DNA from: Curtobacterium sp. L6-1
GTDB lineage: Bacteria; Actinomycetota; Actinomycetes; Actinomycetales; Microbacteriaceae
Direction of reading: 5' to 3'
NCBI RefSeq assembly: GCF_018885305.1
Contig: NZ_CP076544.1
Location: forward strand, 124,001-188,000
DNA length: 64,000 nt
Shown here: in pieces, positions 4,063 through 63,458 of the stretch
Position numbering within the stretch: position 1 is the stretch's first letter
How the letters are laid out: every line of letters starts with the position of its first letter
Position numbers and translations under genes: made by a program
The notes under the pieces: generated by a model
Told to the model about the DNA's origin: nothing
What the model saw: only the letters and a program-made list of their open reading frames with translations
Database searches by the model: none

Positions 4063-4068
4063 TACCGT
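4063..4068 (+). promoter_or_regulatory. -10 element (TACCGT) of a likely leaderless promoter
   Basis: TACCGT fits the actinobacterial TANNNT -10 pattern and ends six bases before the ATG at 4075. No Shine-Dalgarno sequence fits in that space, and no clear -35 is visible. The 3852-4062 spacer otherwise shows no gene. Confidence 0.5.
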
Positions 4069-4074
4069 CGTCGC

Positions 4075-4584
4075 ATGGACCGTTCGGAGATCCTCGCGGC
4101 CGCTGCAGCGGCCCACGCCGCCCGCATCGCCGCCGCCGGTGGTGACGACGGCGCCGCCCGCGAGCGGGCCGAGGCCGCCTCGGCCGCGCCCGCGCCGGAA
4201 CGCCGTCGGTCGGCGGACGCCGAGCGTGCGGCCGAGGCCGACCGGGCCGCCGACCGGACCGAGGGTGCGCTGTCCGACTGGCGCCGGATGGGCACCCGTC
4301 GCGGGATGACCCCGGACGCCCAGATCCGCAGCGCCTGGACGGTCACGGGCGTGCCCGAACAGGGTGACGCGCGCGCGTTCGCCAACGTGCTGCTCTCGAC
4401 CGCCGGGCACGCCGGTCGTGTGGCGGACGCCGCTCGACGCAACGAACGACTGGCGGGTGCGGCACGAGCGGCCGCCCGTCGCACCGTCCGGCGGTACACC
4501 GACCACGGCGCCGGCATGTCGGCGCTGGGTGACGTGCTCGACGCCGGACCGGTCGGTCGCGACGACGACCCGACCCCGGCCTGA
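4075..4584 (+). CDS. Hypothetical Ala/Arg-rich protein
   Basis: A 169-residue protein of unknown function. The N-terminal third is an alanine-, glutamate- and arginine-rich helical stretch. The remainder (from about residue 65) contains DWRRMGTRRGMTPDAQIRSAW and a helical segment with a GHAGRV motif. No signal peptide or membrane helix is visible. Codon use (G/C-ending) is like the neighbours, supporting a real gene. The ATG is preceded by a TACCGT -10 six bases away instead of a ribosome binding site. I do not recognise the family. Confidence 0.6.
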   Translation: MDRSEILAAAAAAHAARIAAAGGDDGAARERAEAASAAPAPERRRSADAERAAEADRAADRTEGALSDWRRMGTRRGMTPDAQIRSAWTVTGVPEQGDARAFANVLLSTAGHAGRVADAARRNERLAGAARAAARRTVRRYTDHGAGMSALGDVLDAGPVGRDDDPTPA

Positions 4585-4674
4585 GCCCGACCCCCGCCTG
4601 AGCCTGGCGCACGCCCGGCCCGACGCACGGTTCGACCCCGCCCGGCCCACGCACGTCCGGACCGGCCGTCAGGG

Positions 4675-5643
4675 TCAGCGGCGGAAGGGGTCCAGGTTGA
4701 GCACGGTGTCCTCGTACAGGTACTGCTGGTCCCCGTAGACCGTGACGTCCGGGTTCAGCCAGACCAGGTCCTTCACGGACAGCCCGAGCCGGTCCGCGAC
4801 CGCGCCGATGAGGTCCTCGGACGCGATCCGGTACGCCGTCGGGGAGCCGTCCGCCGAGCCGTCGTCGCTCGTCGTGCCCGTCGCGTTCGGTCGCGCCCCA
4901 CCGTCGACCGGATGCACGTTCGTCGTCCGGGCGGGGACCGACCAGCGCACCGGCTGCACCGCGAGCACCTTGTCCGGCCCGAGCTCGACGGGCAGGTCCG
5001 GGCCGGCGGACTCGGCGGCCGAGTAGACGACGACCGCACCGAGCCAGGACGGGTCGACCCGGCCGGGGTCCATGTCGGTCGCCGCCGGGGCCGCTGCACC
5101 CGGGCCGCCGCCGAGCCGGGTGTCGCCGACGCCGTGCCAGGACAGGCCGTCGCCCACCGAGGGCGGGGTCTCGAGGAACGTCGCCCCGACCGGGACCGGC
5201 AGCGTCGACGCGAAGCTCGACCACTGCACGGTCGGGTACCCGTCGTCTCCGACGACGACGCGGTAGTGGAACCGGACGCTGCCCTTCGGCGTGACGACGT
5301 CGGCCTCGCTCATCACGGTGCCGACAGCGATGGGGGAGACCGTCGGGTCGGGTGCCGCCGCCTCGGTCGGCACCGGGGTCGGGGTGCGGGGCGAGGCGGA
5401 CTCCGCGATGCGGCGGGCCTCGGCGCTCGCGCTCGGATCGGCGTCCGGGGTGGCGCTACCGTCGTCGGACGCGGCACTGCGGCTCGGGGCGGGCAGTTCG
5501 TCCGGACCGCGGAGGAACGAGCACCCGCTGGCGGTCGTCGCGAGGACGCCCGCGAGCACGGCGGCCCCGATCAGCCGTGCTGCCCGCAGCCGTGCTGCCC
5601 GCAGCCCTGCGGCTCGTCGTGTGGTGCTGTTCCCCTGGTGCAC
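4675..5643 (-). CDS. Putative lipoprotein with C-terminal LysM-like domain
   Basis: A 322-residue exported protein. After a GTG start (preceded by a GAGGGG ribosome-binding stretch) come basic residues, a hydrophobic segment and the lipobox LATTASGCS, so it should be lipid-anchored to the membrane. A Ser/Ala/Pro/Asp-rich linker follows. The central region (VRFHYRVVVGDDGYPTVQW) is not recognised. The last about 50 residues (TAYRIASEDLIGAVADRLGL ... WLNPD) resemble a LysM module, a peptidoglycan-binding fold. A TAGGCT -10 lies upstream (complement of 5670-5675), giving a normal leader of some 20 bases. The exact role is unknown. Confidence 0.75.
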   Translation of the reverse strand: MHQGNSTTRRAAGLRAARLRAARLIGAAVLAGVLATTASGCSFLRGPDELPAPSRSAASDDGSATPDADPSASAEARRIAESASPRTPTPVPTEAAAPDPTVSPIAVGTVMSEADVVTPKGSVRFHYRVVVGDDGYPTVQWSSFASTLPVPVGATFLETPPSVGDGLSWHGVGDTRLGGGPGAAAPAATDMDPGRVDPSWLGAVVVYSAAESAGPDLPVELGPDKVLAVQPVRWSVPARTTNVHPVDGGARPNATGTTSDDGSADGSPTAYRIASEDLIGAVADRLGLSVKDLVWLNPDVTVYGDQQYLYEDTVLNLDPFRR

Positions 5644-5773
5644 GGTCCCCTCGTTCCCCTCGCCCCGGGAGCCTACCGGTGCCCGCCGACGACGGCGGTC
5701 CGGCGTCGGCCCGGGCAGCGCCCAGCGACCAGGACGAGGCCGGCGCGCCCCGGGGGTGGGATGATCACAGACG

Positions 5774-5804
5774 GTCCACCGGAGGTCCGCCCGTGGTGGT
5801 GGAC
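5774..5804. other. Inverted repeat in the 5' region of the sugar-porter gene
   Basis: GTCCACC (5774-5780) and GGTGGAC (5798-5804) form perfect seven-base arms some 40 bases before the MFS start. Outside it, GATCACAGACG (5764) and GATCACGGACG (5821) form a direct repeat 57 bases apart. This could be a leader hairpin or regulator site; no known riboswitch class is recognised. Confidence 0.3.
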
Positions 5805-5844
5805 CCCTCCGACGCCACGCGATCACGGACGAAGGAGCTCCCGC

Positions 5845-7305
5845 ATGGTCGACACGAGACCGACCGCACCGACCACAGCCCTGCCACCGGTGGGCACCGG
5901 CCCGCACCGCCGCCGGCTCGGACTGCTCGCGCTGGTCGCCACGTTCGGCGGCCTGCTGTTCGGCTACGACACGGGCGTCGTGAACGGTGCCCTCCTCCCG
6001 ATGAAGCAGGAACTCGGCCTGACGAACGTGACCGAGGGGGTCGTCACGAGCTCCCTGCTGTTCGGCGCGGCCCTCGGTGCGGTGCTCGGCGGCCGGATCG
6101 CGGACGGCTGGGGGCGCCGGAAGACGATCCTGGTGCTCGCCGTGCTCTTCTTCGTCGGGACGGTGGCGTGCGTCGCCGCGCCGACCTTCGGCGTGATCGT
6201 CGTCGGCCGCGTGCTCCTCGGGCTGGCGGTCGGCGGTGCGTCCACGGTCGTGCCGGTCTTCCTCGCCGAGCTCGCGCCGTACGAGATCCGGGGGTCGCTC
6301 TCCGGCCGGAACGAGCTGATGATCGTCATCGGGCAGCTGGCGGCCTTCCTCGTGAACGCCGCCATCGGCACGCTCTGGGGCGAGGGCGACGGGGTCTGGC
6401 GGGTCATGCTCGCGGTCTGCGCCCTGCCCGCGATCGCCCTGTTCGTCGGCATGCTCCGCGTGCCCGAGTCCCCGCGCTGGTTGGCGTCGAAGGGCCGTGA
6501 CGCCGAGGCGCTCGCGGTCCTGCGGCAGGTCCGCTCCGACGAGCGTGCGGAGGCCGAGCTCGCGGACATCCGCCGGAGCACCACGGTCGCCCCGGACGAG
6601 CCGCGGGAGAGCGGGTGGCGCACGCTGCTCGGGAACCGCTGGCTCGTCCGCATCGTGCTCGTCGGTGCCGGCCTCGGCGTCGCCCAGCAGCTCACCGGCA
6701 TCAACTCGATCATGTACTACGGCCAGACCGTCCTCATCGAGTCGGGGTTCGAGGCGTCGGCGGCCCTCATCGCGAACATCGCACCGGGGGTCATCGCGGT
6801 GGTCGGCGGCGTCGTCGCGATCCGGAACATGGAGCGCATCGACCGGCGGACGACGCTCGTCCTCGGCTTCTCGCTGACGACGGTCTGCCACTTCCTCATC
6901 GGGACGGCGTCCGTCCTGCTGCCCGCCGGCAACCCGGCGCGGCCCTGGGTGATCCTGGTCCTCGTCGTCGCGTTCGTCGGTTCGATGCAGACGTTCCTCA
7001 ACATCGCCACGTGGGTGGTCCTGTCCGAGATCTTCCCGATGCAGATCCGCGCGCTCGGCATGGGCATCGCGGTGTTCTGCCTGTGGACCGCCAACGCGCT
7101 CCTCGGCCTGTCCTTCCCCTCGCTCGTCGCCGCGACCGGCATCACCGGGACGTTCTTCGGCTTCGGCGTCGTCGGACTGCTCGCCCTGGCCTTCATCTGG
7201 CGCTTCGTGCCGGAGAGCCGCGGCCGCACGCTCGAGCAGGTCGAGGAGGGCGTCACCACCGGGGACGTCGGCGCCGTCGCGACGGCGGGTCGCCGCGGGC
7301 ACTGA
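5845..7305 (+). CDS. Sugar porter family MFS transporter
   Basis: A 486-residue, twelve-helix proton-coupled sugar transporter. Family signatures are present in order: GGLLFGYDTGVVNGAL in helix 1, RIADGWGRRKT between helices 2 and 3, PESPRWL before the central loop, QQLTGINSIMYYG in helix 7, and PESRGRTLEQVE near the C-terminus. The ATG is preceded by GAAGGAG (5831-5837). The gene stands alone and ends just before a large palindromic terminator shared with the convergent gene. The substrate is probably a pentose or hexose, but the sequence does not say which. Confidence 0.93.
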   Translation: MVDTRPTAPTTALPPVGTGPHRRRLGLLALVATFGGLLFGYDTGVVNGALLPMKQELGLTNVTEGVVTSSLLFGAALGAVLGGRIADGWGRRKTILVLAVLFFVGTVACVAAPTFGVIVVGRVLLGLAVGGASTVVPVFLAELAPYEIRGSLSGRNELMIVIGQLAAFLVNAAIGTLWGEGDGVWRVMLAVCALPAIALFVGMLRVPESPRWLASKGRDAEALAVLRQVRSDERAEAELADIRRSTTVAPDEPRESGWRTLLGNRWLVRIVLVGAGLGVAQQLTGINSIMYYGQTVLIESGFEASAALIANIAPGVIAVVGGVVAIRNMERIDRRTTLVLGFSLTTVCHFLIGTASVLLPAGNPARPWVILVLVVAFVGSMQTFLNIATWVVLSEIFPMQIRALGMGIAVFCLWTANALLGLSFPSLVAATGITGTFFGFGVVGLLALAFIWRFVPESRGRTLEQVEEGVTTGDVGAVATAGRRGH

Positions 7306-7342
7306 GCCACGCCGGCGCCGCGACGCGTCGGACCGGACCCAC

Positions 7343-7390
7343 GACGGACGGGAGGCCCGGTACCAGCTGGTACCGGGCCTCCCGTCCGTC
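7343..7390. terminator. Perfect 48-bp palindrome, bidirectional terminator
   Basis: Two 22-base arms beginning GACGGACGGGAGGCCCGG flank the tetraloop AGCT, which is itself palindromic. The element lies exactly between the convergent sugar-porter and quinone-reductase genes. No U-tract follows, as is common for terminators in GC-rich actinobacteria. Its outer stem recurs at other loci in the window. Confidence 0.8.
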
Positions 7391-7403
7391 CTGTGGCTGC
7401 GTC

Positions 7404-8396
7404 CTACGGGCGCAGGAGCACCTTGCCCACGCGGCCGGCGGTGTCGCTCGCGCGCACGGCGTCGCGGGCGTCCTCGAACGCGAAGGTGTCGGAGACGGGG
7501 AGCGTCAGCGAGCCGTCGAGCACCCGGGTGATGAGCTCGCCGAACAGCTGCTGCTTCGTCTCGGCCGGCATGGTGCGGCTGACGACGCTGCCCCAGAAGC
7601 CCTTGACCGTGACCTGCTTGAAGATCACGGCACCGGACGGGATCTCCATCGTCGGCGACGCCATGGCGCCGAAGACGACGAGCGTGCCGTTCTCGGCCAG
7701 GGTCGAGACGATGTCGGCCGCGGCCTTCCCGCCGACGGACTCGACGCCCGCGACGATCGGCGCGCCACCGGTGATCGCGGTGACCTGGTCCTGCCAGTCG
7801 TCCGCGTCGGTGGCGACGATCCGCTCGATGCCCTGGGCGCGGAGCTCCTCGACGCCCTCGGCGCGGCGGACGAGGCCGACCACGTTGACGCCACGGGCCG
7901 CGGCGAGCTGGGCGACCATGCGGCCGACCGCACCGTTGGCGGCGTTCTGGATGAGCCAGTCGCCCTCGTGCAGGTCGAGCGAGTGCAGCAGGCTGATCGC
8001 GCTGAACGGCATCGAGACGAGCTGGGCGGCGGACTCGTCGGGCATCGCCTCGGGCACGGGGATGAGCCCGGCCGCGTCGGCGACGTAGTACTCGGCCCAG
8101 ACGCCGAACGTCCCACCGGCGACGCGCTGGCCGACGGTGAGGTCCGACACGCCCTCGCCGAGGGCCTCGACGACGCCGAGCGCCTCGGTGCCGGACTGGG
8201 CGGGCAGTTCGGGCTTGAAGCCGTACGTGCCGCGGATCGTCCACAGGTCGTGGTTGTGGATCGGGGACAGCACGGTGCGGACGAGCACCTGGCCGGCGCC
8301 CGGGGTGGGGACGGGCCGCTGCTCGACGGTCAGGACGTCGGCGGGCTCGCCGAACTCGGGGTGGACGACGGCGCGCATGGTGGTCTGGTCGGTCAT
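7404..8396 (-). CDS. Zinc-independent quinone oxidoreductase (MDR superfamily)
   Basis: A 330-residue medium-chain dehydrogenase/reductase. The N-terminal GroES-like domain has SPIHNHDLWTIRGTYG and lacks the cysteine cluster of zinc alcohol dehydrogenases. The Rossmann domain carries NAANGAVGRM, matching NADPH-dependent quinone reductases. It starts three bases after the end of ohr, so it is probably co-transcribed with ohrR and ohr and may help detoxify electrophiles or quinones during peroxide stress; that link is inference from gene order. Confidence 0.88.
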   Translation of the reverse strand: MTDQTTMRAVVHPEFGEPADVLTVEQRPVPTPGAGQVLVRTVLSPIHNHDLWTIRGTYGFKPELPAQSGTEALGVVEALGEGVSDLTVGQRVAGGTFGVWAEYYVADAAGLIPVPEAMPDESAAQLVSMPFSAISLLHSLDLHEGDWLIQNAANGAVGRMVAQLAAARGVNVVGLVRRAEGVEELRAQGIERIVATDADDWQDQVTAITGGAPIVAGVESVGGKAAADIVSTLAENGTLVVFGAMASPTMEIPSGAVIFKQVTVKGFWGSVVSRTMPAETKQQLFGELITRVLDGSLTLPVSDTFAFEDARDAVRASDTAGRVGKVLLRP

Positions 8397-8399
8397 GGG

Positions 8400-8822
8400 T
8401 CAGTCCTCCGAGACGGTGATGGTGACGTCGATGTTGCCGCGGGTCGCGTTCGAGTACGGGCACACCTGGTGTGCGGCGTCCGCGAGGGCCTGGGCCTGGT
8501 CGTGCTCCATGCCGGGGATCACGACCTCGAGCACGACGGCGAGCTGGTAGCCGCCCTGGCCGTTCGGGCCGATCTGGACGCGACCGCCGACGGACGAGTC
8601 GGCGACCTTGAGCTTCTGCGAGCGGGCGACGCCCTGCAGTGCGGAGTGGAAGCACGCGGCGTACCCGGCGGCGAAGAGCTGCTCGGGGTTGGCGCCGGCA
8701 CCGGAGCCACCCATCTCCTTCGGGATGGCCATGTCCAGCTCGAACGTGCCGTCGCTGGTCTGGACCTTGCCGTTGCGGCCTTCGCCGGTGGACAGGGCTT
8801 CTGCGGTGTAGAGGACGTCCAT
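8400..8822 (-). CDS. ohr: Organic hydroperoxide resistance protein (Ohr/OsmC)
   Basis: A 140-residue thiol peroxidase reducing organic hydroperoxides, active as a dimer in the cytoplasm. The two redox cysteines are present: Cys57 in GYAACFHSAL and Cys121 in HQVCPYSNATRGN. Length and both motifs match the Ohr branch and not OsmC. The ATG is preceded by GAAGGAAGG. It lies downstream of the MarR-type gene ohrR on the same strand and directly upstream of the quinone reductase. The 134 bases to ohrR contain no obvious separate operator, suggesting transcription from the ohrR promoter. Confidence 0.95.
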   Translation of the reverse strand: MDVLYTAEALSTGEGRNGKVQTSDGTFELDMAIPKEMGGSGAGANPEQLFAAGYAACFHSALQGVARSQKLKVADSSVGGRVQIGPNGQGGYQLAVVLEVVIPGMEHDQAQALADAAHQVCPYSNATRGNIDVTITVSED

Positions 8823-8956
8823 TGCGTCGTTCCTTCCTTCGTGGGGTCTGTGTGGTCTGTGGCCGTGCCGCTCGCTCCGCCGGTGGCGGATGTGGGCGGC
8901 GGGCGCGGTCCGCGCTGGGCGACACCGTCCGCGCCGCGGGGCGCGGAGCCCGTCGC

Positions 8957-9481
8957 TCAGGCCGAGGGCCGGGAGGCGCCGGTCCCGCCCGGCGCGGCGG
9001 TCGCGAGGCCCGCGGGGTCGCTCGGCGCGGCGGGCGCTCCCGGCGCGGGCGTGGTGGCGGCGCGGTGCATCGTCTCGGTGAGGCGCTGCAGCGTCGCGAT
9101 GAGCTCGGCGGCCGACCGCTCGTCGGCCAGGCCGGTGCCCGCCGCGACGGCCGCGGGGACGTGCGCGAGCTCGGTGCGCAGGCTGCGTCCGCGCTCGCCG
9201 GTGGTGACGGTGACGACGCGCTCGTCGGTGCTCCGGCGTTCGCGGCGGACGAGGTCGGCCTGCTCCATGCGCTTGAGCAGCGGCGACAGGGTGCCCGAGT
9301 CGAGCTGCAGGTGGTCGCCGAGGCTCGACACGGTCTGGTCGCCCTCCACCCAGAGGGTCACGAGCACGAGGTACTGCGGGTACGTCAGGCCCCACGGCTC
9401 GAGCAGCGTCCGGTACGCCTGGGTGGTCGCACGGGTCGCCGCGTAGAGGGAGAAGCACACCATCTCGTCGGTCACGGGCAT
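8957..9481 (-). CDS. ohrR: MarR-family peroxide sensor OhrR (one-Cys type)
   Basis: A 174-residue MarR regulator expected to repress ohr until its cysteine is oxidised by organic hydroperoxides. Cys9 in MVCFSLYAATRA is in the position of the OhrR sensing cysteine. No other cysteine occurs in the protein, which is the one-Cys form. The winged helix follows (SSLGDHLQLDSGTLSPLLKRME ... RRSTDERVV). I prefer the ATG at 9481, with AAGGG upstream, over a GTG at 9514 that would add an unusual Cys-rich tail. An Ala/Pro/Gly-rich extension of about 30 residues ends the protein. Confidence 0.9.
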   Translation of the reverse strand: MPVTDEMVCFSLYAATRATTQAYRTLLEPWGLTYPQYLVLVTLWVEGDQTVSSLGDHLQLDSGTLSPLLKRMEQADLVRRERRSTDERVVTVTTGERGRSLRTELAHVPAAVAAGTGLADERSAAELIATLQRLTETMHRAATTPAPGAPAAPSDPAGLATAAPGGTGASRPSA

Positions 9482-9483
9482 GC

Positions 9484-9517
9484 TGCAACCCTTGCACGCG
9501 ATCGTGTTGCACACAAC
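9484..9517. promoter_or_regulatory. Candidate OhrR operator region
   Basis: Two dyads precede ohrR: TGCAA-CCC-TTGCA (9484-9496), which overlaps the ribosome binding region, and GTTG-CACA-CAAC (9506-9517). Their place at the start of a self-regulating MarR gene makes them the best operator candidates. Binding is inferred. Confidence 0.45.
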
Positions 9518-9637
9518 TCAGTCAGCCGGACGCCCAGCAGGATCACGGCGGTCGTCCGCCCACAGCGCACACCGGGTGCCGGAGCGCGCACGGACGGACG
9601 GGTGTCCTCCGGTCCCGTTAGGCTGGCCGGACCGACG

Positions 9638-14946: not shown

Positions 14947-15018
14947 ACCGTCCCGCCCGTGCGGCCGACCGCCCGGGCGTGGCGGACGCGAGGGGTGCCT
15001 CCAGGCCGGGCGCCGCGC

Positions 15019-16917
<1,899 letters not shown>

Positions 16918-16927
16918 GCCACCGCAA

Positions 16928-16943
16928 TTTACAGCGCTGTAAA
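16928..16943. promoter_or_regulatory. LacI-type operator between GH2 and lacI genes
   Basis: TTTACAGCGCTGTAAA is a perfect 16-base palindrome with the central CG typical of LacI-family sites. It lies in the 52-base gap between the divergent GH2 and LacI genes and overlaps the GH2 -10 region, so it can control both. The identical 16-mer occurs at 26043-26058. Confidence 0.85.
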
Positions 16944-16957
16944 GACCGCGTCAACGG

Positions 16958-16963
16958 TACGGT
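16958..16963 (+). promoter_or_regulatory. -10 element (TACGGT) of the LacI gene
   Basis: TACGGT ends six bases before the GTG at 16970, so the transcript probably begins at or next to the start codon. The operator palindrome occupies the space where a -35 would lie, fitting autorepression. Confidence 0.5.
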
Positions 16964-16969
16964 GAGCGC

Positions 16970-17995: not shown

Positions 17996-18032
17996 CCCCA
18001 CCGGGCGCCGGTTCGTCGGGTCGCGCGGGGCG

Positions 18033-19294: not shown

Positions 19295-19300
19295 GGACCA

Positions 19301-19306
19301 ACGATA
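19301..19306 (-). promoter_or_regulatory. -10 element (TATCGT) of the TetR gene
   Basis: Reads TATCGT on the minus strand, six bases upstream of the GTG at 19294. Nearby, TGCTACCG is repeated directly at 19316-19323 and 19336-19343 (20-base period) in the shared promoter region, a possible regulator site. Confidence 0.5.
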
Positions 19307-26141: not shown

Positions 26142-26954
26142 TCAGGAGTATCGGCGGGCCGCCCGCAGCGCGGCGTCCGTGTACGACCCGCCGAACAGGA
26201 GGACGTGCAGCAGCAGCGGCGCGAGCTGGTGCAGCTCGACGCGCTCCTGCCACCCGGCGGCCAGCCGGGACTCGGCGTCGTAGGCCGCCAGCACCGTCTC
26301 GAGCCGCGGCAGCCCGAACAGGGCGAGCAGCGCCAGGTCCGTCTCGGCGTGTCCGCCGTGCGGGTTCGCGTCGATGAGCACGGCGCCGGTCGGCTCGGAG
26401 GTGTCCCGCGGCCAGAGCACGTTCCCGGCCCACAGGTCGCCGTGCAGTCGGGCGGGTCCGTCCCCGACCAGCGCCGCCTGCGGGGAGCCGAGCGTGCCGT
26501 CCTCCAGGCGGTCGCAGACGCGCTCGAACACCGCGGCCTCGGCGCCGTCGAACCCGCCGGCATCGACGATGCGCTGCACGAAGTCCCGGATCCGGTACTC
26601 GGCGAAGAACGCACCCCAGGTCGACGGCGCCTCGGACGCCGGGACGAACGGTGTGCGGGAGCGACCCATCCGCAGCGGTCCGTTCGCGGGGAAGCCCGGC
26701 GAGGGCGCTCCCCAGTGCGACGCCCCCGCCGCGTGCGTGTGGGCGAGCGACCGGCCGAAGCGCTCCGCCTGCTGCTTCGTCGGTGCCCCGTCGGAGACGA
26801 ACTCCAGCTCGAGCACCGTCGGCCGCGGGCGCCGGACCACGCGGGCGACGCGGGTCCCACCGCCGTCCTCGGCCTCGGCGAGCCACTCCAGTCCGGCTGC
26901 CTCGGCGGCTGCCTCGTCCGGGGCGGCGAAGGTCTTCACGAACGTCTCCGACAT
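26142..26954 (-). CDS. Fructosamine/ketosamine-3-kinase family protein
   Basis: A 270-residue protein with the aminoglycoside-phosphotransferase-like fold. The catalytic loop is LHGDLWAGNVLW and the metal-binding segment is VLIDANPHGGHAETDLALL, both as in fructosamine kinases that phosphorylate glycated proteins or ketosamines for repair. The ATG has a purine-rich AGGATGGGGG before it, and CAGGAT could also serve as a -10 six bases away. It is monocistronic, between the ABC operon promoter and the LysR gene. Confidence 0.88.
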   Translation of the reverse strand: MSETFVKTFAAPDEAAAEAAGLEWLAEAEDGGGTRVARVVRRPRPTVLELEFVSDGAPTKQQAERFGRSLAHTHAAGASHWGAPSPGFPANGPLRMGRSRTPFVPASEAPSTWGAFFAEYRIRDFVQRIVDAGGFDGAEAAVFERVCDRLEDGTLGSPQAALVGDGPARLHGDLWAGNVLWPRDTSEPTGAVLIDANPHGGHAETDLALLALFGLPRLETVLAAYDAESRLAAGWQERVELHQLAPLLLHVLLFGGSYTDAALRAARRYS

Positions 26955-27046
26955 GCCCCCATCCTGCCGACGACGCCTCCGAGTCGCCGTGGGGCGGGCA
27001 GCGCGCGTCGCAGGGCAACGCGCGTCGCCGGTCAGGGCGTCGCAGG

Positions 27047-29445: not shown

Positions 29446-29482
29446 CACCCCATCCTGCCGGTGCCGGCGGGTTCGGTCCGGG

Positions 29483-29838: not shown

Positions 29839-29844
29839 TACGCT
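29839..29844 (+). promoter_or_regulatory. -10 element (TACGCT) of the UbiA gene
   Basis: TACGCT ends six bases before the GTG at 29851, with no ribosome binding site between, predicting leaderless transcription. Confidence 0.5.
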
Positions 29845-32802: not shown

Positions 32803-32808
32803 AGCCTA
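32803..32808 (-). promoter_or_regulatory. -10 element (TAGGCT) of the monooxygenase gene
   Basis: TAGGCT on the minus strand, six bases from the GTG at 32796. The 323-base spacer from here to 33119 also contains the 33056-33077 dyad but no gene that I can support. Confidence 0.5.
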
Positions 32809-36235: not shown

Positions 36236-36335
36236 CACGCCAGTCTGCTCCCGGCGGCCAAGAAGCGCCTCAGTGCTGCCGGATCGCTCTCTCAGGTCCG
36301 GGCCGGGCCGCGCGGAGCGGACGACCGCAGCGACG

Positions 36336-37960: not shown

Positions 37961-37966
37961 TAGTCT
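37961..37966 (+). promoter_or_regulatory. -10 element (TAGTCT) of the alpha/beta hydrolase operon
   Basis: TAGTCT ends six bases before the ATG at 37973. The upstream sequence offers no convincing -35. Confidence 0.5.
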
Positions 37967-41302: not shown

Positions 41303-41309
41303 GCCGCCG

Positions 41310-41315
41310 ACGCTA
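41310..41315 (-). promoter_or_regulatory. -10 element (TAGCGT) of the acidic-protein gene
   Basis: TAGCGT on the minus strand, seven bases from the GTG at 41302; the divergent LacI promoter is 70 bases away. Confidence 0.45.
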
Positions 41316-41383
41316 CTGCGCCGGCAGCGGGTGTGGGCGTGGCGGTGGCACATGTCGCACGTCGTGTTCCGCGTCCGTCGCGC

Positions 41384-41389
41384 TACGGT
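41384..41389 (+). promoter_or_regulatory. -10 element (TACGGT) of the second LacI gene
   Basis: TACGGT ends six bases before the ATG at 41396, the same spacing and hexamer as the first LacI gene. GCACATGTCGC lies about 35 bases upstream and may be a regulator site. Confidence 0.5.
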
Positions 41390-41395
41390 GCTGTC

Positions 41396-45384: not shown

Positions 45385-45390
45385 ACCGTA
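45385..45390 (-). promoter_or_regulatory. -10 element (TACGGT) of the third LacI gene
   Basis: TACGGT on the minus strand, six bases from the GTG at 45378. Confidence 0.5.
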
Positions 45391-46919: not shown

Positions 46920-46921
46920 CC

Positions 46922-51302: not shown

Positions 51303-51348
51303 CGGGGAACCGGCCGGTGACGGTCGCCGCGGGGGAGCGCGGGACCGT

Positions 51349-51392
51349 CGGACGGGAGGCCCGTGACCAGCTGGTCACGGGCCTCCCGTCCG
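51349..51392. terminator. Perfect 44-bp palindromic terminator after GH3
   Basis: Twenty-base arms beginning CGGACGGGAGGCCCGTGACC around AGCT, between the convergent GH3 and membrane-protein genes. Same outer stem and same AGCT centre as the 7343-7390 element, with a different inner stem. Confidence 0.8.
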
Positions 51393-51421
51393 TCGTGTGG
51401 TCGTGGCGTCCGCGCCGGTCC

Positions 51422-51760: not shown

Positions 51761-51766
51761 GCCGTG

Positions 51767-51772
51767 AGGCTA
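51767..51772 (-). promoter_or_regulatory. -10 element (TAGCCT) of the small membrane-protein gene
   Basis: TAGCCT on the minus strand, six bases from the ATG at 51760. Confidence 0.5.
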
Positions 51773-51870
51773 GCGAGACAGGGACGGACGGATGGACGAA
51801 CGTGCCGTGCGTTCCGAGGTCTCCGCTCCGGACCGGTCAGCTGCTGACACCTCGTCATCCTGCGCGTCCC

Positions 51871-51876
51871 TAGGGT
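51871..51876 (+). promoter_or_regulatory. -10 element (TAGGGT) of the YbaK-like gene
   Basis: TAGGGT ends six bases before the ATG at 51883; the only purines between are GGAACG, too close to act as a Shine-Dalgarno. Confidence 0.5.
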
Positions 51877-51882
51877 GGAACG

Positions 51883-52476: not shown

Positions 52477-52507
52477 CCCGGCGGTCCGGCCCTCGACGCC
52501 CGCCGAC

Positions 52508-52559
52508 GTCAGCGCGAGGGCGAACGTCAGTGCGAGGCCGCGGTCAGCGCGAGGCTGCG
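52508..52559. repeat. Three 17-18 bp tandem copies at the hrpA 3' end
   Basis: GTCAGCGCGAGG-type units start at 52508, 52526 and 52543. The last one includes the hrpA stop (52544-52546) and its final codons; the other two lie downstream and each repeats the stop-codon context. Confidence 0.7.
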
Positions 52560-56434: not shown

Positions 56435-56469
56435 GAGCATTCCAGGATACCGTCCGGGCGCGTCCGCGA

Positions 56470-58314: not shown

Positions 58315-58363
58315 GCTCCCAGCGTGCCCCGACCGGCCTGAGTGGGCGGGCCTCCCGACCGAT

Positions 58364-58390
58364 CTGTGGACAGGACCGCGCCGTCCACAG
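58364..58390. terminator. CTGTGGAC/GTCCACAG hairpin after the kinase gene
   Basis: Perfect eight-base arms with an 11-base loop in the 88-base gap, 12 bases beyond the kinase stop on the minus strand. It probably ends the epimerase-kinase transcript before the YyaL-type gene's own promoter. Confidence 0.6.
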
Positions 58391-58402
58391 GCGCCGTGCG
58401 CG

Positions 58403-58951
58403 TCAGGCGAGCCAGCCGACCAGTCGGCCGATCCGGCCGGCGATCTCGGCCGGCGTCGACCCGTCGGTGTCCAGCCGCACGACGTGGTCCGGCGCGGTGG
58501 CGTCGAGCCTCCGTGCCGTCGTCGCGCTGTGGTCGACGTCCGCCTGGCGGACGTGTCCTGCCGCACGGTGGTCGAGTCGCCCGTGCGTCACGTCGTCGTC
58601 GGCGCGCAGGAGGACGGCCGTCACCGTCGGGTCGTCGCCCATCGCGGCGGCGAGGCGGGCTGACTCGAGCACGGACACGGTGTTCGTGAACACGAGCCGG
58701 TGGTGTCCGAGGGCCCGGGTGTTGGCCCACAGGGCGGCGAGGTTCCGCTCGGCGAGACGGGCCTCCGGGTGCTCGCGGTGCGGAGCGGGCCACGCCAGGT
58801 CGAGCGAGTCGCCCTCGACGACGACGTGGCGGACCGCGGCGTCGGCGAGGAGGTCGTGGAGCGCCGCGGCCACCGTCGACTTGCCCACCCCGGAGCGACC
58901 GCCGATGACCAGCAGCTCCGAGCGGGGTGGCGGGACGGACGCCGCGGTCAC
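58403..58951 (-). CDS. P-loop small kinase-like ATPase
   Basis: 182 residues with Walker [20 protein letters not shown] at the N-terminus, then [14 protein letters not shown] and a lid region with [18 protein letters not shown]. It resembles nucleotide or gluconate-type kinases (AAA_33), but the substrate is not recognisable. The GTG start lies 15 bases after the epimerase stop, so the two are one transcript. The ligand may be linked to the nucleotide-sugar neighbour. Confidence 0.78.
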
Positions 58952-58966
58952 CGGTCGGCGCGCCGG

Positions 58967-60034
58967 TCAGTTGAGCCCGAGCGACAGCAGCGCGAGCGCC
59001 GCGTCCTCCGGGCCGTAGTCGAACATCCGGTCCCAGAACGGGTCGGCAGCCCACGGCACGTCCCCGTCCGCCGGGGTCCGGCGGGCGGTCTCGACGAGCC
59101 AGTCCAGTTCGGGCCGCACCGCCTCGGCGAAGCGGGGCGGCTCCCACCCCAGGGCCCGTGCGGCCGTCGTGTCGAGCACGAACGGCGACGGCGACGACCA
59201 CGGGGTGACGCCGACGAAGGCGGGCGCGTCCGCACCGAGGAGGACCTCGTCGAACCGGTGGTCGAGGAGCCCCGCGACCGTGCGGACGATCTCGAGCGCG
59301 GTCGGGGCGGTCTCGTCGGCGACGTTGAGAATCCGGCGGTCCGGTGCGTCCGCGATGGTCCGGACGAGGGCGCCGATGCCCGAGGCCGCCGTGGTGTGGT
59401 CGACACCGCGCCCCTCGTCCGCCAGCAGGATCCGCTCCCGGCCGTCCAGGACCCGGCGGACGACGAACCACTCGCGCGGTCGTCCGATGCCGACGCCGTA
59501 CACCTTCGACGGCCGCAGCACGGTGACCGGGGCGCCGTGGTCGAGCAGCACCTGCTCGGCGGCGACCTTGGCCGCACCGTACCCGTCCCGCGAGGTCGGG
59601 TCGCCGTCACCGGGTGCGACGGTCGGCTGCAGTTCGGTGACCGCGCCGCCGAAGACCGGCCGCTCGACGGAGTTCGCGTGGCGTCCCTGCTCGTCGGCGT
59701 AGACGGCCTTCGAGGAGACGAAGACCGTCGACCCGACGTCGTCCAGGAACGGTGCGAGCTGCAGGGCGTCGTCGCGGGTGAGGCCCATGGTGTCCACGAC
59801 CAGGTCGGCGCCGGGGCGGAGCAGGTCGCGCAGCAGCGCGGTGTCCCGCCGGTCGCCCGGGCGGGCGAGGGCTCCGGCCGCGACGAGTTCGTCGGCGACG
59901 GGGCCGCCGCGTCGGGACACGATCTCGACGGTCCAGTCGTCGCCACCGCGTCCGGAGGCGCCGAGGAGTTCGCGGGCGACCTGGGACCCGATGCCGCCGG
60001 TCCCGCCGAGGACCACGGCGCGTCTGCTGCTCAT
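58967..60034 (-). CDS. NAD-dependent epimerase/dehydratase family protein
   Basis: A 355-residue extended short-chain dehydrogenase. The dinucleotide loop is VVLGGTGGIGSQVARELLG, VFVSSKAVY supplies the Ser, and the active-site Tyr-Lys appears as YGAAKVAAEQVL. It ends with a domain accepting a nucleotide-sugar-like substrate (GWEPPRFAEAVRPELDWLVE). The substrate is unknown. The ATG is seven bases from a TAGCGT -10. Followed closely by the P-loop kinase. Confidence 0.88.
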   Translation of the reverse strand: MSSRRAVVLGGTGGIGSQVARELLGASGRGGDDWTVEIVSRRGGPVADELVAAGALARPGDRRDTALLRDLLRPGADLVVDTMGLTRDDALQLAPFLDDVGSTVFVSSKAVYADEQGRHANSVERPVFGGAVTELQPTVAPGDGDPTSRDGYGAAKVAAEQVLLDHGAPVTVLRPSKVYGVGIGRPREWFVVRRVLDGRERILLADEGRGVDHTTAASGIGALVRTIADAPDRRILNVADETAPTALEIVRTVAGLLDHRFDEVLLGADAPAFVGVTPWSSPSPFVLDTTAARALGWEPPRFAEAVRPELDWLVETARRTPADGDVPWAADPFWDRMFDYGPEDAALALLSLGLN

Positions 60035-60041
60035 GGCGCCA

Positions 60042-60047
60042 ACGCTA
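60042..60047 (-). promoter_or_regulatory. -10 element (TAGCGT) of the epimerase gene
   Basis: TAGCGT on the minus strand, seven bases from the ATG at 60034; no Shine-Dalgarno fits between. Confidence 0.5.
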
Positions 60048-60091
60048 GACCGCGGGGCACGGCGCGCCGGACCGACGGGAGGGTCGGACCG

Positions 60092-60943
60092 TCAGGAGGC
60101 GACCGGTTCCCGCCACCACTCGGCGAGGGAGCCGTCGTACACGCGGACCTTGCGGTGCCCGAGGACCGTCAGCGCCAGGGCGTCCACGCACGAGGCGCTC
60201 CCGACACCGCAGTAGGTCACGACCTCGTCCGCCGAGAGCACGGGGGCGAGGGCGCGCTCGAGGTCGGTGTGGCGCAGGAACGCGTTCGACTCGTCGAGGA
60301 GCTCGTGCACGGGGATGGTCGTGCTGCCGGGCACCACGGGCGGGTGGTCGTCGCCGAGCGTGGTGACGTCCGCGGCGAGGACGAGTGCGGCGGGCTCCGA
60401 CCCGTCCACCGCCCGCAGGACGCGGGCGCGGTCGGCCCACAGCGGGCGTTCCTCACCGGCGACGAACGCGTCGCCGTCGGCCGCGGGCCGCGGCGCGCGG
60501 GACAGGGCACCGACGCGCACCGGGCGGCCCTCGTCGCGCCACTTCGGGAAGCCGCCGTCGAGGACGGCGACGGACTCGAAGCCGTACGAGCGGAAGATCC
60601 ACCAGAGGCGGGCGGACCACTCGCCGATGCCGTCGTCGTAGACCACCACCGTGGAGGCGCGGCTCACCCCGATCGCGCGGGCGGCGGACTCGAAACGCTC
60701 GACGTCCGGGCGGGTGAACGGGAGGCCGGTGTCCGGCGACGAGAACGCGTGGATGAGGTCGGCGTAGACGGCGCCGGGGACGTGTCCGTCGTGTTCGTGC
60801 GCGGTCTGCGCGGAGTGCCAGGTCGTGTCGAGGCCGATGCCGTCCGTGTGCACCGAGGCGTCGAGGACGAGGAGGTCGTCCGCGCCGAGGTGGTCGGCGA
60901 GCCACTGCGTCGACACGAGCGGCGAGGTCAGGACGGGGGCCAT
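60092..60943 (-). CDS. Thiosulfate/3-mercaptopyruvate sulfurtransferase
   Basis: 283 residues with two rhodanese domains: the inactive N-terminal one (LVLDASVHTDG ... HVPGAVYADL) and the catalytic C-terminal one with Cys245 in VTYCGVGSASC. The CGVG loop lacks the full CRxGxR form of thiosulfate-specific enzymes, so 3-mercaptopyruvate or another donor is possible. It transfers sulfane sulfur in the cytoplasm. The ATG is seven bases from a TACGGT -10. Monocistronic. Confidence 0.9.
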   Translation of the reverse strand: MAPVLTSPLVSTQWLADHLGADDLLVLDASVHTDGIGLDTTWHSAQTAHEHDGHVPGAVYADLIHAFSSPDTGLPFTRPDVERFESAARAIGVSRASTVVVYDDGIGEWSARLWWIFRSYGFESVAVLDGGFPKWRDEGRPVRVGALSRAPRPAADGDAFVAGEERPLWADRARVLRAVDGSEPAALVLAADVTTLGDDHPPVVPGSTTIPVHELLDESNAFLRHTDLERALAPVLSADEVVTYCGVGSASCVDALALTVLGHRKVRVYDGSLAEWWREPVAS

Positions 60944-60950
60944 GCCGATC

Positions 60951-60956
60951 ACCGTA
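60951..60956 (-). promoter_or_regulatory. -10 element (TACGGT) of the sulfurtransferase gene
   Basis: TACGGT on the minus strand, seven bases from the ATG at 60943. Confidence 0.5.
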
Positions 60957-61042
60957 AACCAGACCTCTGACTCGTGACAGAGAGTCAGCAACAAGGCGAC
61001 ATGCGCGTCCCCACAGGTGCCGAGCCGGTCGGGGAACACGGA

Positions 61043-61079
61043 ACGGACACCACCCGGGCGCTGCCCGTGCGGTGTCCGT
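61043..61079. terminator. Two-tier hairpin terminator after the DHA2 efflux gene
   Basis: ACGGACACC (61043-61051) pairs with GGTGTCCGT (61071-61079). Inside, CGGGC and GCCCG pair around GCT. It lies just past the stop of the minus-strand efflux gene and shares no sequence with the GGACGGGAGG family. Confidence 0.7.
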
Positions 61080-61094
61080 CCCGTTCGCTGCCGC

Positions 61095-62636
61095 TCAGTG
61101 TGCGGCGGCCGGGATGCTCCCCGTCGCGTCCGACCCGGCGCGCTCGAGGCGTGCCAGTCGCACCGACTGTCGGTTGATGAGCAGCCCGCTCGCGATCGCG
61201 ACGAGGACCAGCACGCTGGCCGAGATCGCGAACGCGGCGTGGTACCCGTCGAGCGTGGCCTGGGCCTGCTGCAGCTTCGTCGGTGCCCCGCCCAGTCCGG
61301 AGAGACTGTTCGCGACCACGTCGGCGAAGATCGTCGACAGCAGCGCGGTCCCGATCGAGCCACCGATCTGCTGCATGGTGTTGACCGTGGCCGACGCGAC
61401 GCCGGCATCGGCACGGGCCACCCCGGTCGTGGCGGTGTTCATGGCCGACGAGAAGATCGTGCCCATGCCGAGGCCGATCACGATGAGCGCCGGCAGCACG
61501 GTGCCCGCGTAGGAGCTGTCGAGGTCGGTGCGCAGGAGCAGCAGGAGCCCGGTCGCAGCGACCAGTCCGCCAGCGAAGATGAGCACCTTCGGGCCGACGC
61601 GGGGGAGCAGACGCCCACCGATCTGCGTCGCCGACAGCATGATCGACAGCGGCATCGGCAGGAACGCCAGTCCGGTCTGCAGCGCCGAGAAGCCGAGGGT
61701 CTGCTCGAGGTAGTAAGTCAGGAACAGGAAGATGCCGAACATCCCGATGGCGACCAGGCCGATCGCGACGAACGAACCGCCGCGGTCACGGTCGAGGACG
61801 ACACGCAGGGGGAGCAGCGGGTGTGCGACGCGGGTCTCGATGACGATGAAGGCCGCGATGAGCAGGACACCGCCGGCGAGCATGCCGATCGTGACCGGGT
61901 CGTCCCAGCCGTTGGTCTCGGCGTTCGAGAAGCCGTAGACGACGCCGACCAGACCGGCCGTGATGGTGAGGACGCCCGCCACGTCGATGCGCGGACGCTC
62001 GACCTTCGGCGGCTTCGCCATGAAGACGAGGGCGCCGATGACGCCGAGGACGGCGAACACGACGTTCACGTAGAGGCACCAGCGCCACGAGGCGTACTCG
62101 GTCAGGACGCCGCCGAGCAGCAGGCCGATGGCCGCACCCGAGCCGGCGATCGAACCGAAGATGCCGAACGCGCGACCGCGCTCCTTGGGGTCGCGGAACG
62201 TGGTGGTGAGCATGCCCAGCGCCGACGGGGCGAGCAGCGCGCCGAACACGCCCTGCAGGGCACGGGCCGCGACGAGCAGCCCGAACGAGTCGGCCAGGCC
62301 GCCCAGGACCGAGGCGACGGCGAAGCCGACCAGGCCGATGATGAACGTGTTCTTCCGGCCGAAGAGGTCACCGAGTCGACCGCCGAGGAGCAGCAGCGAG
62401 CCGAACGCCAGCGAGTACGCCGTGACGATCCACTGGCGCTGGTCGGTGCCGAACCCGAGGTCCTGCTGCGCCGAGGGCAGCGCGATGTTCACGATGGTGG
62501 CGTCGAGGACGACCATGAGCTGGGCGAGGGCGATGACCGCGAGGGCGATCCATCGGTGGTCGGTCCGGGCCGGGGTGGGGCCCGCTGTGCTGGGCGTCGC
62601 TCCTGTGGGAGCGGGCGCGGTCTGTTCTGCCGTCAC
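61095..62636 (-). CDS. DHA2-type MFS drug efflux transporter (EmrB/QacA-like)
   Basis: A 513-residue, fourteen-helix proton-driven exporter. Signatures: ALAQLMVVLDATIVNIALP in helix 1, LGGRLGDLFGRKNTFI after helix 2, and the helix 5 antiporter motif GSIAGSGAAIGLLLGGVLTE followed by YASWRWCLYVNV. It should export hydrophobic drugs or dyes. The GTG start has AGAAGGAGG upstream. It is divergent from a TetR gene across a region with two 23-base dyads, the usual arrangement of a ligand-induced pump. Confidence 0.92.
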   Translation of the reverse strand: MTAEQTAPAPTGATPSTAGPTPARTDHRWIALAVIALAQLMVVLDATIVNIALPSAQQDLGFGTDQRQWIVTAYSLAFGSLLLLGGRLGDLFGRKNTFIIGLVGFAVASVLGGLADSFGLLVAARALQGVFGALLAPSALGMLTTTFRDPKERGRAFGIFGSIAGSGAAIGLLLGGVLTEYASWRWCLYVNVVFAVLGVIGALVFMAKPPKVERPRIDVAGVLTITAGLVGVVYGFSNAETNGWDDPVTIGMLAGGVLLIAAFIVIETRVAHPLLPLRVVLDRDRGGSFVAIGLVAIGMFGIFLFLTYYLEQTLGFSALQTGLAFLPMPLSIMLSATQIGGRLLPRVGPKVLIFAGGLVAATGLLLLLRTDLDSSYAGTVLPALIVIGLGMGTIFSSAMNTATTGVARADAGVASATVNTMQQIGGSIGTALLSTIFADVVANSLSGLGGAPTKLQQAQATLDGYHAAFAISASVLVLVAIASGLLINRQSVRLARLERAGSDATGSIPAAAH

Positions 62637-62705
62637 GACAGCCTCCTTCTCGAAGGATGGAAGGGGAGGAGGGGCGCGCGCCGTCGGGCGTCCCGGAGGA
62701 TGGTG

Positions 62706-62728
62706 AAGCGGATGCCGGGCATCCGCTT
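62706..62728. promoter_or_regulatory. TetR-type operator 1
   Basis: AAGCGGATGCC-G-GGCATCCGCTT: perfect 11-base arms around one G, in the gap between the efflux gene and its regulator. Confidence 0.75.
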
Positions 62729-62745
62729 GTGACCACTGTAGCCCA

Positions 62746-62768
62746 AAACGGAGTCACCGCATCCGTTT
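62746..62768. promoter_or_regulatory. TetR-type operator 2
   Basis: AAACGGA and TCCGTTT arms with a nine-base spacer, also 23 bases long and aligned in form with operator 1. The two centres are 40 bases apart, about four helical turns. Confidence 0.7.
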
Positions 62769-62786
62769 GTTCCCAGACTGTTCGTC

Positions 62787-62792
62787 TAGGTT
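62787..62792 (+). promoter_or_regulatory. -10 element (TAGGTT) of the TetR gene
   Basis: TAGGTT ends six bases before the GTG at 62799; operator 2 covers the -35 position, which fits autorepression. Confidence 0.55.
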
Positions 62793-62798
62793 CGTCCC

Positions 62799-63458
62799 GT
62801 GAGCACCACCGGATCCGCGGCCGACCTCGACCGGCCCCTGCGCGCCGACGCCGCGCGCAACCGCGAACTGATCCTGCAGACCGCACGCAAGTGCTTCGCC
62901 GAGCGGGGCATCTCCGTCACGCTGAACGACATCGCCCACGAAGCCGGCGTCGGTGTCGGCACGGTGTACCGGCGCTTCGCCGACAAGGACTCCCTGATCG
63001 AGGCGCTCCTCGCGACCAAGTTCGAGGCGATGAACGCCGCTGCCGCCCGGGCCGCCGAGGAACTCGACCCGCGCGAATCCCTCCGCCTGTACCTGATGGG
63101 CGTCTTCTCCTTCCGGGCCCGCGACCGTGCGCTCGCCGACGCCATCGTCCGTGCGGGCAGGGCCCGGCCCTCGATCGTGCTCGAGCGCGACCGGCTCGAA
63201 CAGCAGGTGGCGACGATCATCGGCCGCGCCAGGGACGCCGGCGTGGTGCGCCCCGGCTTCGACGCCCGCGACCTCCCGATCCTCACGGCGATGGTCGGCA
63301 CGGTCGCCGACGCCACCCGCGAGCACGACCCCGACGCCTGGAAGCGCTACGCCCAGGTGCTGGTCGACGGCGTCCTGCCGCAGGCGGAGCCGGACGAGAT
63401 GGTCGGCGAACCGCTCGACCGCGACGCGCTCGAACGCGCCATGCAGCCGCAGTCCTGA
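62799..63458 (+). CDS. TetR-family transcriptional regulator
   Basis: 219 residues. The DNA-binding domain covers about residues 20-65 (ARNRELILQTARKCFAERGI, LNDIAHEAGVGVGTVYRRFADKDSLIEALL). The ligand domain includes RLYLMGVFSFRARDRALADA, similar to regulators of multidrug pumps. GTG start, leaderless type. It is divergent from the DHA2 exporter and should repress it and itself through the two dyads. The inducer is unknown. Confidence 0.92.
   Translation: MSTTGSAADLDRPLRADAARNRELILQTARKCFAERGISVTLNDIAHEAGVGVGTVYRRFADKDSLIEALLATKFEAMNAAAARAAEELDPRESLRLYLMGVFSFRARDRALADAIVRAGRARPSIVLERDRLEQQVATIIGRARDAGVVRPGFDARDLPILTAMVGTVADATREHDPDAWKRYAQVLVDGVLPQAEPDEMVGEPLDRDALERAMQPQS

What the first reader, a model, noticed from the sequence alone, without database searches (positions are those of the whole stretch)
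4063..62799. Widespread leaderless-type promoters: TANNNT ending 6-7 nt before the start codon
Fourteen genes on both strands share a TANNNT hexamer with a 6- or 7-nt gap to ATG/GTG and no Shine-Dalgarno. Start codons and hexamers are: 4075 TACCGT, 16970 TACGGT, 29851 TACGCT, 37973 TAGTCT, 41396 TACGGT, 51883 TAGGGT, 62799 TAGGTT, and minus strand 19294 TATCGT, 32796 TAGGCT, 41302 TAGCGT, 45378 TACGGT, 51760 TAGCCT, 60034 TAGCGT, 60943 TACGGT. CANNNT variants occur at 26954, 29445, 36235 and 58314. The constant spacing is far from random. Genes inside operons use Shine-Dalgarno sequences or stop-start overlaps instead. Leaderless mRNAs are known to be common in actinobacteria. Five of the fourteen encode regulators, which may mean that this class has its own translation control.
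Basis: partly seen in the sequence, partly recalled or inferred. Interest (0 to 1): 0.7.

Follow-up and report, generated by a model that had tools for sequence, protein, structure and literature searches.

The report
Leaderless-gene promoters in a Curtobacterium genome
Many genes of this actinobacterium appear to begin transcription right on their start codon, a layout already known to be common in its phylum; a modest extra is that weaker versions of the promoter tend to carry a helper motif.

Summary
All 14 TANNNT sites are in place, and a motif-blind gene call plus a scan of nearby in-frame starts recovered exactly these 14. In an 864-kb sample (25% of the genome) TANNNT peaks sharply at gap 6-7 before ATG/GTG: 148 of 733 genes. 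Held-out stretches gave 49 sites against 2.2 expected. The genus is Curtobacterium. In five congeners 49 of 49 testable ortholog comparisons (12 genes) keep the hexamer before the same start; five Shine-Dalgarno-type control genes, 0 of 18. For three genes, 30 of 30 genus loci read keep it.

Best explanation: sigma-70-type -10 elements whose transcription start is the start codon, giving leaderless mRNAs, a known actinobacterial class (PMC3160421, PMC3898074). Transcript ends were not measured.

CANNNT variants are real as a class. CANNNT and GANNNT sites carry an extended -10 (TGn) in 24 of 63 against 4 of 148 TANNNT sites; this compensation, known from E. coli, repeats in two other genera.

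Special translation control finds no support: early-codon A+T content and folding match leadered genes. Regulator enrichment holds for MarR and TetR genes, not for LacI (outside the window) or GntR.

The parts
4063..4068 (+). TACCGT, -10 element, gap 6 to ATG 4075 (169-aa protein, no Pfam match)
   Evidence: kept in 3 of 3 congeners with an ortholog
16958..16963 (+). TACGGT, -10 element, gap 6 to GTG 16970 (LacI-family regulator)
   Evidence: 1 of 1 ortholog; in the other four congeners only a 38-39% paralog was found in the stretches and was dropped
29839..29844 (+). TACGCT, -10 element, gap 6 to GTG 29851 (UbiA family)
   Evidence: 5 of 5
37961..37966 (+). TAGTCT, -10 element, gap 6 to ATG 37973 (alpha/beta hydrolase)
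   Evidence: 5 of 5
41384..41389 (+). TACGGT, -10 element, gap 6 to ATG 41396 (LacI-family regulator)
   Evidence: 5 of 5; 30 of 30 genus loci read, own genome included
51871..51876 (+). TAGGGT, -10 element, gap 6 to ATG 51883 (aminoacyl-tRNA editing domain)
   Evidence: 5 of 5; 30 of 30 genus loci read, own genome included
62787..62792 (+). TAGGTT, -10 element, gap 6 to GTG 62799 (TetR-family regulator)
   Evidence: 5 of 5, at gap 6 or 7
19301..19306 (-). TATCGT, -10 element, gap 6 to GTG 19294 (TetR-family regulator)
   Evidence: no ortholog in the five sets of stretches, so conservation untested
32803..32808 (-). TAGGCT, -10 element, gap 6 to GTG 32796 (FAD-binding domain protein)
   Evidence: 5 of 5
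41310..41315 (-). TAGCGT, -10 element, gap 7 to GTG 41302 (499 aa, no Pfam match)
   Evidence: no ortholog above 55% identity; a 53% hit in G034 has TAGCGT gap 7 before a GTG six codons downstream
45385..45390 (-). TACGGT, -10 element, gap 6 to GTG 45378 (LacI-family regulator)
   Evidence: 4 of 4
51767..51772 (-). TAGCCT, -10 element, gap 6 to ATG 51760 (112 aa, no Pfam match)
   Evidence: 1 of 1
60042..60047 (-). TAGCGT, -10 element, gap 7 to ATG 60034 (NAD-dependent epimerase type)
   Evidence: 5 of 5, gap 6 or 7
60951..60956 (-). TACGGT, -10 element, gap 7 to ATG 60943 (rhodanese-domain protein)
   Evidence: 5 of 5; 30 of 30 genus loci read, gap 7 in 29 and gap 6 in 1
26961..26966 (-). CAGGAT, CANNNT variant, gap 6 to ATG 26954 (fructosamine kinase family)
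   Evidence: CAGGAT kept in 5 of 5, never TA; overlaps a 4-nt SD match
29452..29457 (-). CAGGAT, CANNNT variant, gap 6 to GTG 29445
   Evidence: only a 43% identical hit was found, with CAGGAT at gap 6, and was not counted; 4-nt SD match, so an SD reading is not excluded
36242..36247 (-). CAGACT, CANNNT variant, gap 6 to ATG 36235 (acyltransferase domain)
   Evidence: 1 of 3: one hit lies at a stretch end and could not be read, one lacks it
58321..58326 (-). CACGCT, CANNNT variant, gap 6 to ATG 58314 (DsbH-type thioredoxin domain)
   Evidence: CACGCT kept in 5 of 5, gap 6 or 7
16926..16931 (-).
   Evidence: gaps 8 and 9 hold 12 and 10 sites in the sample against 1-2 at gaps 10-12

Best explanation
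The hexamers are the -10 elements of sigma-70-type promoters placed so that RNA polymerase starts on the first base of the start codon. The mRNA then has no 5' leader and no Shine-Dalgarno site, and is translated by the leaderless route. Shown here: the hexamer, its 6-7 nt distance, its concentration at starts of genes that are not operon-interior, the lack of a common -35, the scarcity of SD matches, and conservation across the genus. Inferred: that transcription starts on the start codon, that the sigma factor is the housekeeping one, and that leaderless initiation follows. A second, weaker form has C or G in the first hexamer place and is helped by a TGn extended -10.
For: Sharp peak at gap 6/7 at in-frame gene starts, flat controls. 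Held-out set: 49 sites against 2.2 expected. 49 of 49 ortholog comparisons above 55% identity, for 12 of the 14 genes, keep TANNNT at gap 6/7 before the same start; 5 SD-type control genes chosen by eye, 0 of 18. 30 of 30 genus loci read for each of three genes. No common -35 in 83 aligned sites. At gap 7 the base before the start is a pyrimidine in 44 of 51, against 65 of 97 at gap 6 and 374 of 585 in other genes, and the start is ATG in 40 of 51 against 54 of 97, as expected if the codon's own purine is +1. Gaps 8 and 9 hold 12 and 10 sites, gap 10 one, fitting the M. marinum reporter in which leaders under 4 nt are translated (PMC8022548, passages). A non-T first base goes with TGn: GANNNT 14 of 23, CANNNT 10 of 40, TANNNT 4 of 148, repeated in G060 and G050. 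In M. tuberculosis mapped starts have TANNNT 7-12 bp upstream, no -35, and 26% of genes with a primary start are leaderless (PMC3898074, passages).
Against: No transcript ends were measured. TTG is absent at gap 6/7 (0 of 163 in-frame TTG), but TTG starts are rare anyway (8 of 585 non-motif starts), so this does not discriminate. At gap 6 the base before the start does not differ from other genes (65 of 97 against 374 of 585, P=0.65). 45 of 148 motif genes carry a 4-nt or longer SD match and 10 of 192 operon-interior genes have the motif. Across the order the tRNA-editing gene keeps it in 12 of 29 loci. Two of the 14 genes had no usable ortholog. Gene starts come from my own simple caller, not from an annotation.
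Confidence: 0.95

Rival explanations
1. The hexamer is a translation signal in a longer leader, for instance a ribosome or S1 contact, and transcription starts further upstream.
For: A fixed distance to the start codon would also fit a ribosome contact. 45 of 148 motif genes carry a 4-nt or longer SD match.
Against: C or G at the first base goes with TGn and with A in hexamer places 4-5, which is -10 promoter logic. The motif is rare in operon-interior genes, which also need translating (10 of 192). For two of three genes little further upstream is conserved. TANNNT is the mapped -10 in M. tuberculosis.
Confidence: 0.03
2. Chance, plus the reader's choice of start codons.
Against: Held-out peak of 49 against 2.2 expected; flat controls; 49 of 49 ortholog comparisons.
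Confidence: 0.005
3. A special regulatory class: leaderless genes share a translation control that suits regulators.
For: Outside the window MarR 17 of 29 and TetR 12 of 28. Among divergent genes, LacI, TetR and MarR together outside the window 22 of 40 against 73 of 255, P=0.0017, the second set containing some of the first.
Against: LacI 2 of 12 and GntR 3 of 17; with GntR added the divergent comparison is 23 of 48, P=0.011. MarR against GntR across the order 12 of 28 against 6 of 29, P=0.09. No significant difference in early-codon A+T or folding. A C. glutamicum study reports no functional preference (PMC3890552, passages). In the 25 commonest Pfam families of the motif set, regulator families account for roughly 15 of 148 proteins.
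Confidence: 0.1

Closest known systems
TA-led (leaderless) genes, Zheng et al. 2011 (PMC3160421; abstract and passages seen)
   Same: TANNNT around 12 bp upstream of the start codon, counted from the first T; more than 20% of genes in Actinobacteria and Deinococcus-Thermus; taken as leaderless promoters; transcription genes (COG K) more often leaderless.
   Different: Here the extended -10 of CANNNT/GANNNT sites is added and conservation is followed gene by gene in one genus. Curtobacterium, Clavibacter, Leifsonia and Microbacteriaceae do not occur in its main text.
Leaderless transcriptome of M. tuberculosis, Cortes et al. 2013 (PMC3898074; passages seen)
   Same: TANNNT -10, no conserved -35, 26% of genes with a primary start leaderless.
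   Different: Experimental there, sequence only here. TGN preceded 7% of conserved TANNNT there; here TG precedes 4 of 148 TANNNT but 24 of 63 C/GANNNT sites.
YANNNT -10 and short-leader rule in M. marinum (PMC8022548; passages seen)
   Same: C or T at the first position; leaders under 4 nt translated; no consensus -35.
   Different: G at the first position with TGn is not described in the passages seen; TGN preceded 12% of YANNNT there.
TGn compensation in E. coli promoters (PMC2613000, review; passages seen)
   Same: G at -14 makes up for a poor -12 base; Pminor, with G at -12, is a stated case.
   Different: Seen here as a statistical pattern in leaderless-type promoters without a common -35.
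-10 region adjacent to ORFs in Deinococcus-Thermus (PMC12340547; passages seen)
   Same: TANNNT as the -10 of leaderless genes, with a spacing requirement tested by experiment.
   Different: Another phylum.

Membership tests
Leaderless genes with a TANNNT promoter (TA-led class) | TANNNT at a fixed short distance from the start codon, above background | tested here: met
Leaderless genes with a TANNNT promoter (TA-led class) | Start of transcription at or within a few bases of the start codon | not testable with these tools
   needs 5'-end mapping; the pyrimidine before the start at gap 7 is consistent, gap 6 is neutral
Leaderless genes with a TANNNT promoter (TA-led class) | Few Shine-Dalgarno sites | tested here: met
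   5-nt or longer match in 6 of 148 against 215 of 585; 4-nt or longer in 45 of 148 against 398 of 585
Leaderless genes with a TANNNT promoter (TA-led class) | Start codon ATG or GTG only | tested here: inconclusive
   0 of 163 in-frame TTG, but TTG is rare in other genes too (8 of 585)
Leaderless genes with a TANNNT promoter (TA-led class) | Gene not inside an operon | tested here: met
   10 of 192 operon-interior against 135 of 532 others
Sigma-70-type -10 element | TGn extended -10 goes with a poor first -10 base | tested here: met
Classical -35/-10 sigma-70 promoter | Conserved -35 element | tested here: not met
   none in 83 aligned sites; so not filed as this class; mapped M. tuberculosis promoters also lack one

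The most novel reading that the evidence does not exclude
Leaderless promoters in this order come in two exchangeable forms: plain TANNNT, and TGn-[C/G]ANNNT, in which an extended -10 stands in for the missing T at -12. The second form can be held as such (CAGGAT and CACGCT never turn into TA in 5 of 5 congeners each), so C or G at -12 may set a low or activator-dependent output. In addition, divergent MarR and TetR repressor genes are leaderless about twice as often as divergent genes at large, perhaps because a start codon at +1 lets one operator shut transcription while read-through RNA is not translated.
Probability: 0.35. Interest if true: 0.45.

Novelty: new member of a known kind. Interest (0 to 1): 0.3.

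Why it matters
It shows that the leaderless layout can be read from sequence alone in a genus for which two paper searches listed no such description, and it helps to fix start codons for about a fifth of the sampled genes. The TGn exchange gives a testable rule for weak leaderless promoters.

Tried and rejected
Hidden leaderless micro-ORFs: TANNNT-N6/7-ATG/GTG sites wholly outside called genes number 33, 21 at gap 6 and 12 at gap 7, against 4 to 18 at other gaps from 0 to 30. By eye several of the longer ones look like real proteins that my caller missed; the short ones are at chance level. Rejected as a class.

Downstream translation signal: A+T at bases 4-15, 16-30, 31-45 and 61-90 and folding of bases 1-40 give P from 0.08 to 0.4. 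Single-base frequencies at positions 4-12 were printed without a test; some differ by up to 10 points (for instance A at +7, 24% against 34%).

Divergent pairs sharing compact promoters: both genes leaderless in 14 of 124 pairs against 11.0 expected; distance difference P=0.11.

TTG exclusion as proof: dropped, because TTG is rare throughout.

GANNNT alone is partly confounded with Shine-Dalgarno: 11 of 23 carry a 5-nt or longer match. AANNNT at gap 6/7, 6 against 1.8 expected (P=0.011), vanishes without SD genes. Discriminator GG after CANNNT, 15 of 39 against 12 of 142 background and 25 of 148 TANNNT, was not pursued.

Rfam on the window: 0 matches at gathering scores.

Rows dropped: hits of 55% identity or less were not counted (16970 in four genomes, 45378 in one, 41302 in one, 29445 in one). 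In one search one MarR locus (L283), whose row was not shown to me, was left out.

Errors of mine: one search read minus-strand loci in the wrong direction and is replaced. In one search one locus lay at a contig end (L130) and one had the wrong strand (L166); both were printed and read again, and the 30-of-30 counts include them.
Full report
What was given. A reader listed 14 genes with TANNNT ending 6-7 nt before the start codon, plus four CANNNT cases, and proposed leaderless promoters with possible translation control of regulators.

Where it is. The window (73% G+C) is part of a 3.40-Mb single-contig genome. A scan of named genomes with the rhodanese protein gave 7 loci: 5 Curtobacterium, 1 unnamed Microbacteriaceae, 1 distant 29% match. 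The genus name rests on these.

The observation. All 18 sites are present. A codon-usage caller written for this, blind to the motif, gave 55 genes in the window. Scanning in-frame starts near its choice gave the 14 listed genes and no others. In window plus 40 stretches, 148 of 733 genes carry the motif at gap 6 or 7. Internal starts and out-of-frame ATG/GTG are flat. The 342 held-out genes repeat the peak at first-choice starts: 33 and 16 against 1.12 per gap. The refutation test named in the finding, a spacing plot without a peak, was thus run on a quarter of the genome and did not refute it.

What travels with it. By upstream context the motif is in 10 of 192 genes within 30 nt of a same-strand gene, 25 of 109 at 30-100, 37 of 168 beyond 100, 73 of 255 divergent, 3 of 9 at a stretch edge. 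A 5-nt or longer match to the 16S tail (read) occurs in 6 of 148, against 215 of 585 in the rest; a 4-nt or longer match in 45 against 398. No common -35 stands out in the 83 sites of the first set. Gap 7 goes with ATG (40 of 51 against 54 of 97, P=0.007) and with a pyrimidine before it (44 of 51 against 65 of 97, P=0.011; 374 of 585 in other genes); gap 6 does not differ from other genes there (P=0.65). Gaps 8 and 9 hold 12 and 10 sites, gap 10 one.

Conservation. Window proteins were compared with syntenic stretches of five congeners. Twelve of the 14 genes have orthologs above 55% identity: 49 comparisons, 49 with TANNNT at gap 6 or 7 before the same start. 19294 and 41302 could not be tested. 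CANNNT: 26954 5 of 5, 58314 5 of 5, 36235 1 of 3, 29445 none above 55%. Five SD-type control genes, chosen by eye: 0 of 18. Across the genus 30 loci per gene were read, of 39 (rhodanese), 38 (LacI, 77% identity or more) and 33 (tRNA-editing, 72% or more) found in 40 genomes; the own genome is one of each. All 30 keep the site for each gene. Around the LacI gene conservation fades about five bases before the hexamer. Around the tRNA-editing gene it mostly does too, apart from a C (86%) and T (76%) 27 and 26 bases before the hexamer, which in the window is a CTGACA 21 bases from the hexamer, not the usual 17. The rhodanese gene has further conserved blocks. Across the order the tRNA-editing gene keeps the motif in 12 of 29 loci.

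The variants. In the 585 genes without TANNNT, CANNNT stands at gap 6/7 in 40 against 9.2 expected and GANNNT in 29 against 9.3; changes of the second or sixth base show no excess. Among genes without a 4-nt SD match CANNNT is 28 against about 3, none of them operon-interior; GANNNT is 8 against 3.3. TG at the extended -10 position: TANNNT 4 of 148, CANNNT 10 of 40, GANNNT 14 of 23; against TANNNT P=3.6e-5 and 1.7e-11. A in the fourth or fifth hexamer place is also commoner. In 400 kb each of two other genera, one of the same family (G060) and one of another family (G050), the peak repeats (75 of 350 and 50 of 320 genes) and so does TG: 9 of 23 against 2 of 75 (P=2e-5) and 10 of 23 against 4 of 50 (P=8e-4). 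This is how a sigma-70 -10 element behaves: in E. coli a G at -14 makes up for a poor -12 base (PMC2613000, passages). YANNNT as the -10 is reported in M. marinum (PMC8022548, passages). Searches were the only ones near this topic, so I do not claim that the pattern is unpublished.

Regulators. Own-genome family searches, starts pinned by the DNA-binding domain: LacI 5 of 15, TetR 14 of 30 (loci for 30 of 32 matches), MarR 17 of 30 (30 of 40 matches), GntR 3 of 17. Without the window's genes: 2 of 12, 12 of 28, 17 of 29, 3 of 17. Genes not inside operons: 135 of 532. Among divergent genes LacI, TetR and MarR together, outside the window, 22 of 40 against 73 of 255 (P=0.0017); with GntR 23 of 48 (P=0.011); the 255 contain some of these genes. 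Across the order MarR 12 of 28, GntR 6 of 29, P=0.09. Pfam on the 148 motif genes and on 148 drawn at random from 403 others not inside operons (first 330 residues each; 25 commonest families shown): TetR 5 against not listed (so 2 or fewer), MarR 5 against 3, LacI 4 against 2; the first list includes the window's five. So the enrichment is real for MarR and TetR and does not extend to all regulators. Zheng et al. report transcription genes as more often leaderless; the C. glutamicum study reports no preference.

Translation control. Early-codon A+T content and folding do not set these genes apart. Nothing here supports a control beyond the lack of a leader.

Verdict. Leaderless promoters of the known actinobacterial kind, well supported by sequence and not yet proved by transcript mapping. 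The TGn exchange and the MarR/TetR bias are the modest additions.

Noticed in passing
16928-16943: Perfect 16-bp palindrome TTTACAGCGCTGTAAA between the divergent GH2 gene (start 16917) and the LacI-family gene (start 16970). It overlaps the GH2 gene's TAAATT at gap 8 and is centred about 35 bases before the LacI start: a likely shared operator.
   Followed up: partly
60957-61001, upstream of the rhodanese gene (start 60943, minus strand): Blocks beyond the hexamer, including GTCAG-GG 15 to 8 bases before it, are strongly conserved in 29 aligned genus loci, unlike the other two genes; perhaps a regulator site.
   Followed up: partly
L086:8221, L014:14505, L071:3737: Leaderless-type sites marked small protein genes that the simple gene caller missed; by eye they look PspC-like and glutaredoxin-like (names by eye, no search).
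   Followed up: no
51850-51860, upstream of the tRNA-editing gene: A CTGAC-type block about 27 bases before the hexamer is partly conserved in the genus (C 86%, T 76%), too far from the hexamer for a usual -35.
   Followed up: no
41303-41395 and 51761-51882: Two divergent gene pairs have both starts leaderless-type with only 93 and 122 bases between them. In the stretches fetched, 1 of 5 congeners has a 51760 ortholog.
   Followed up: partly
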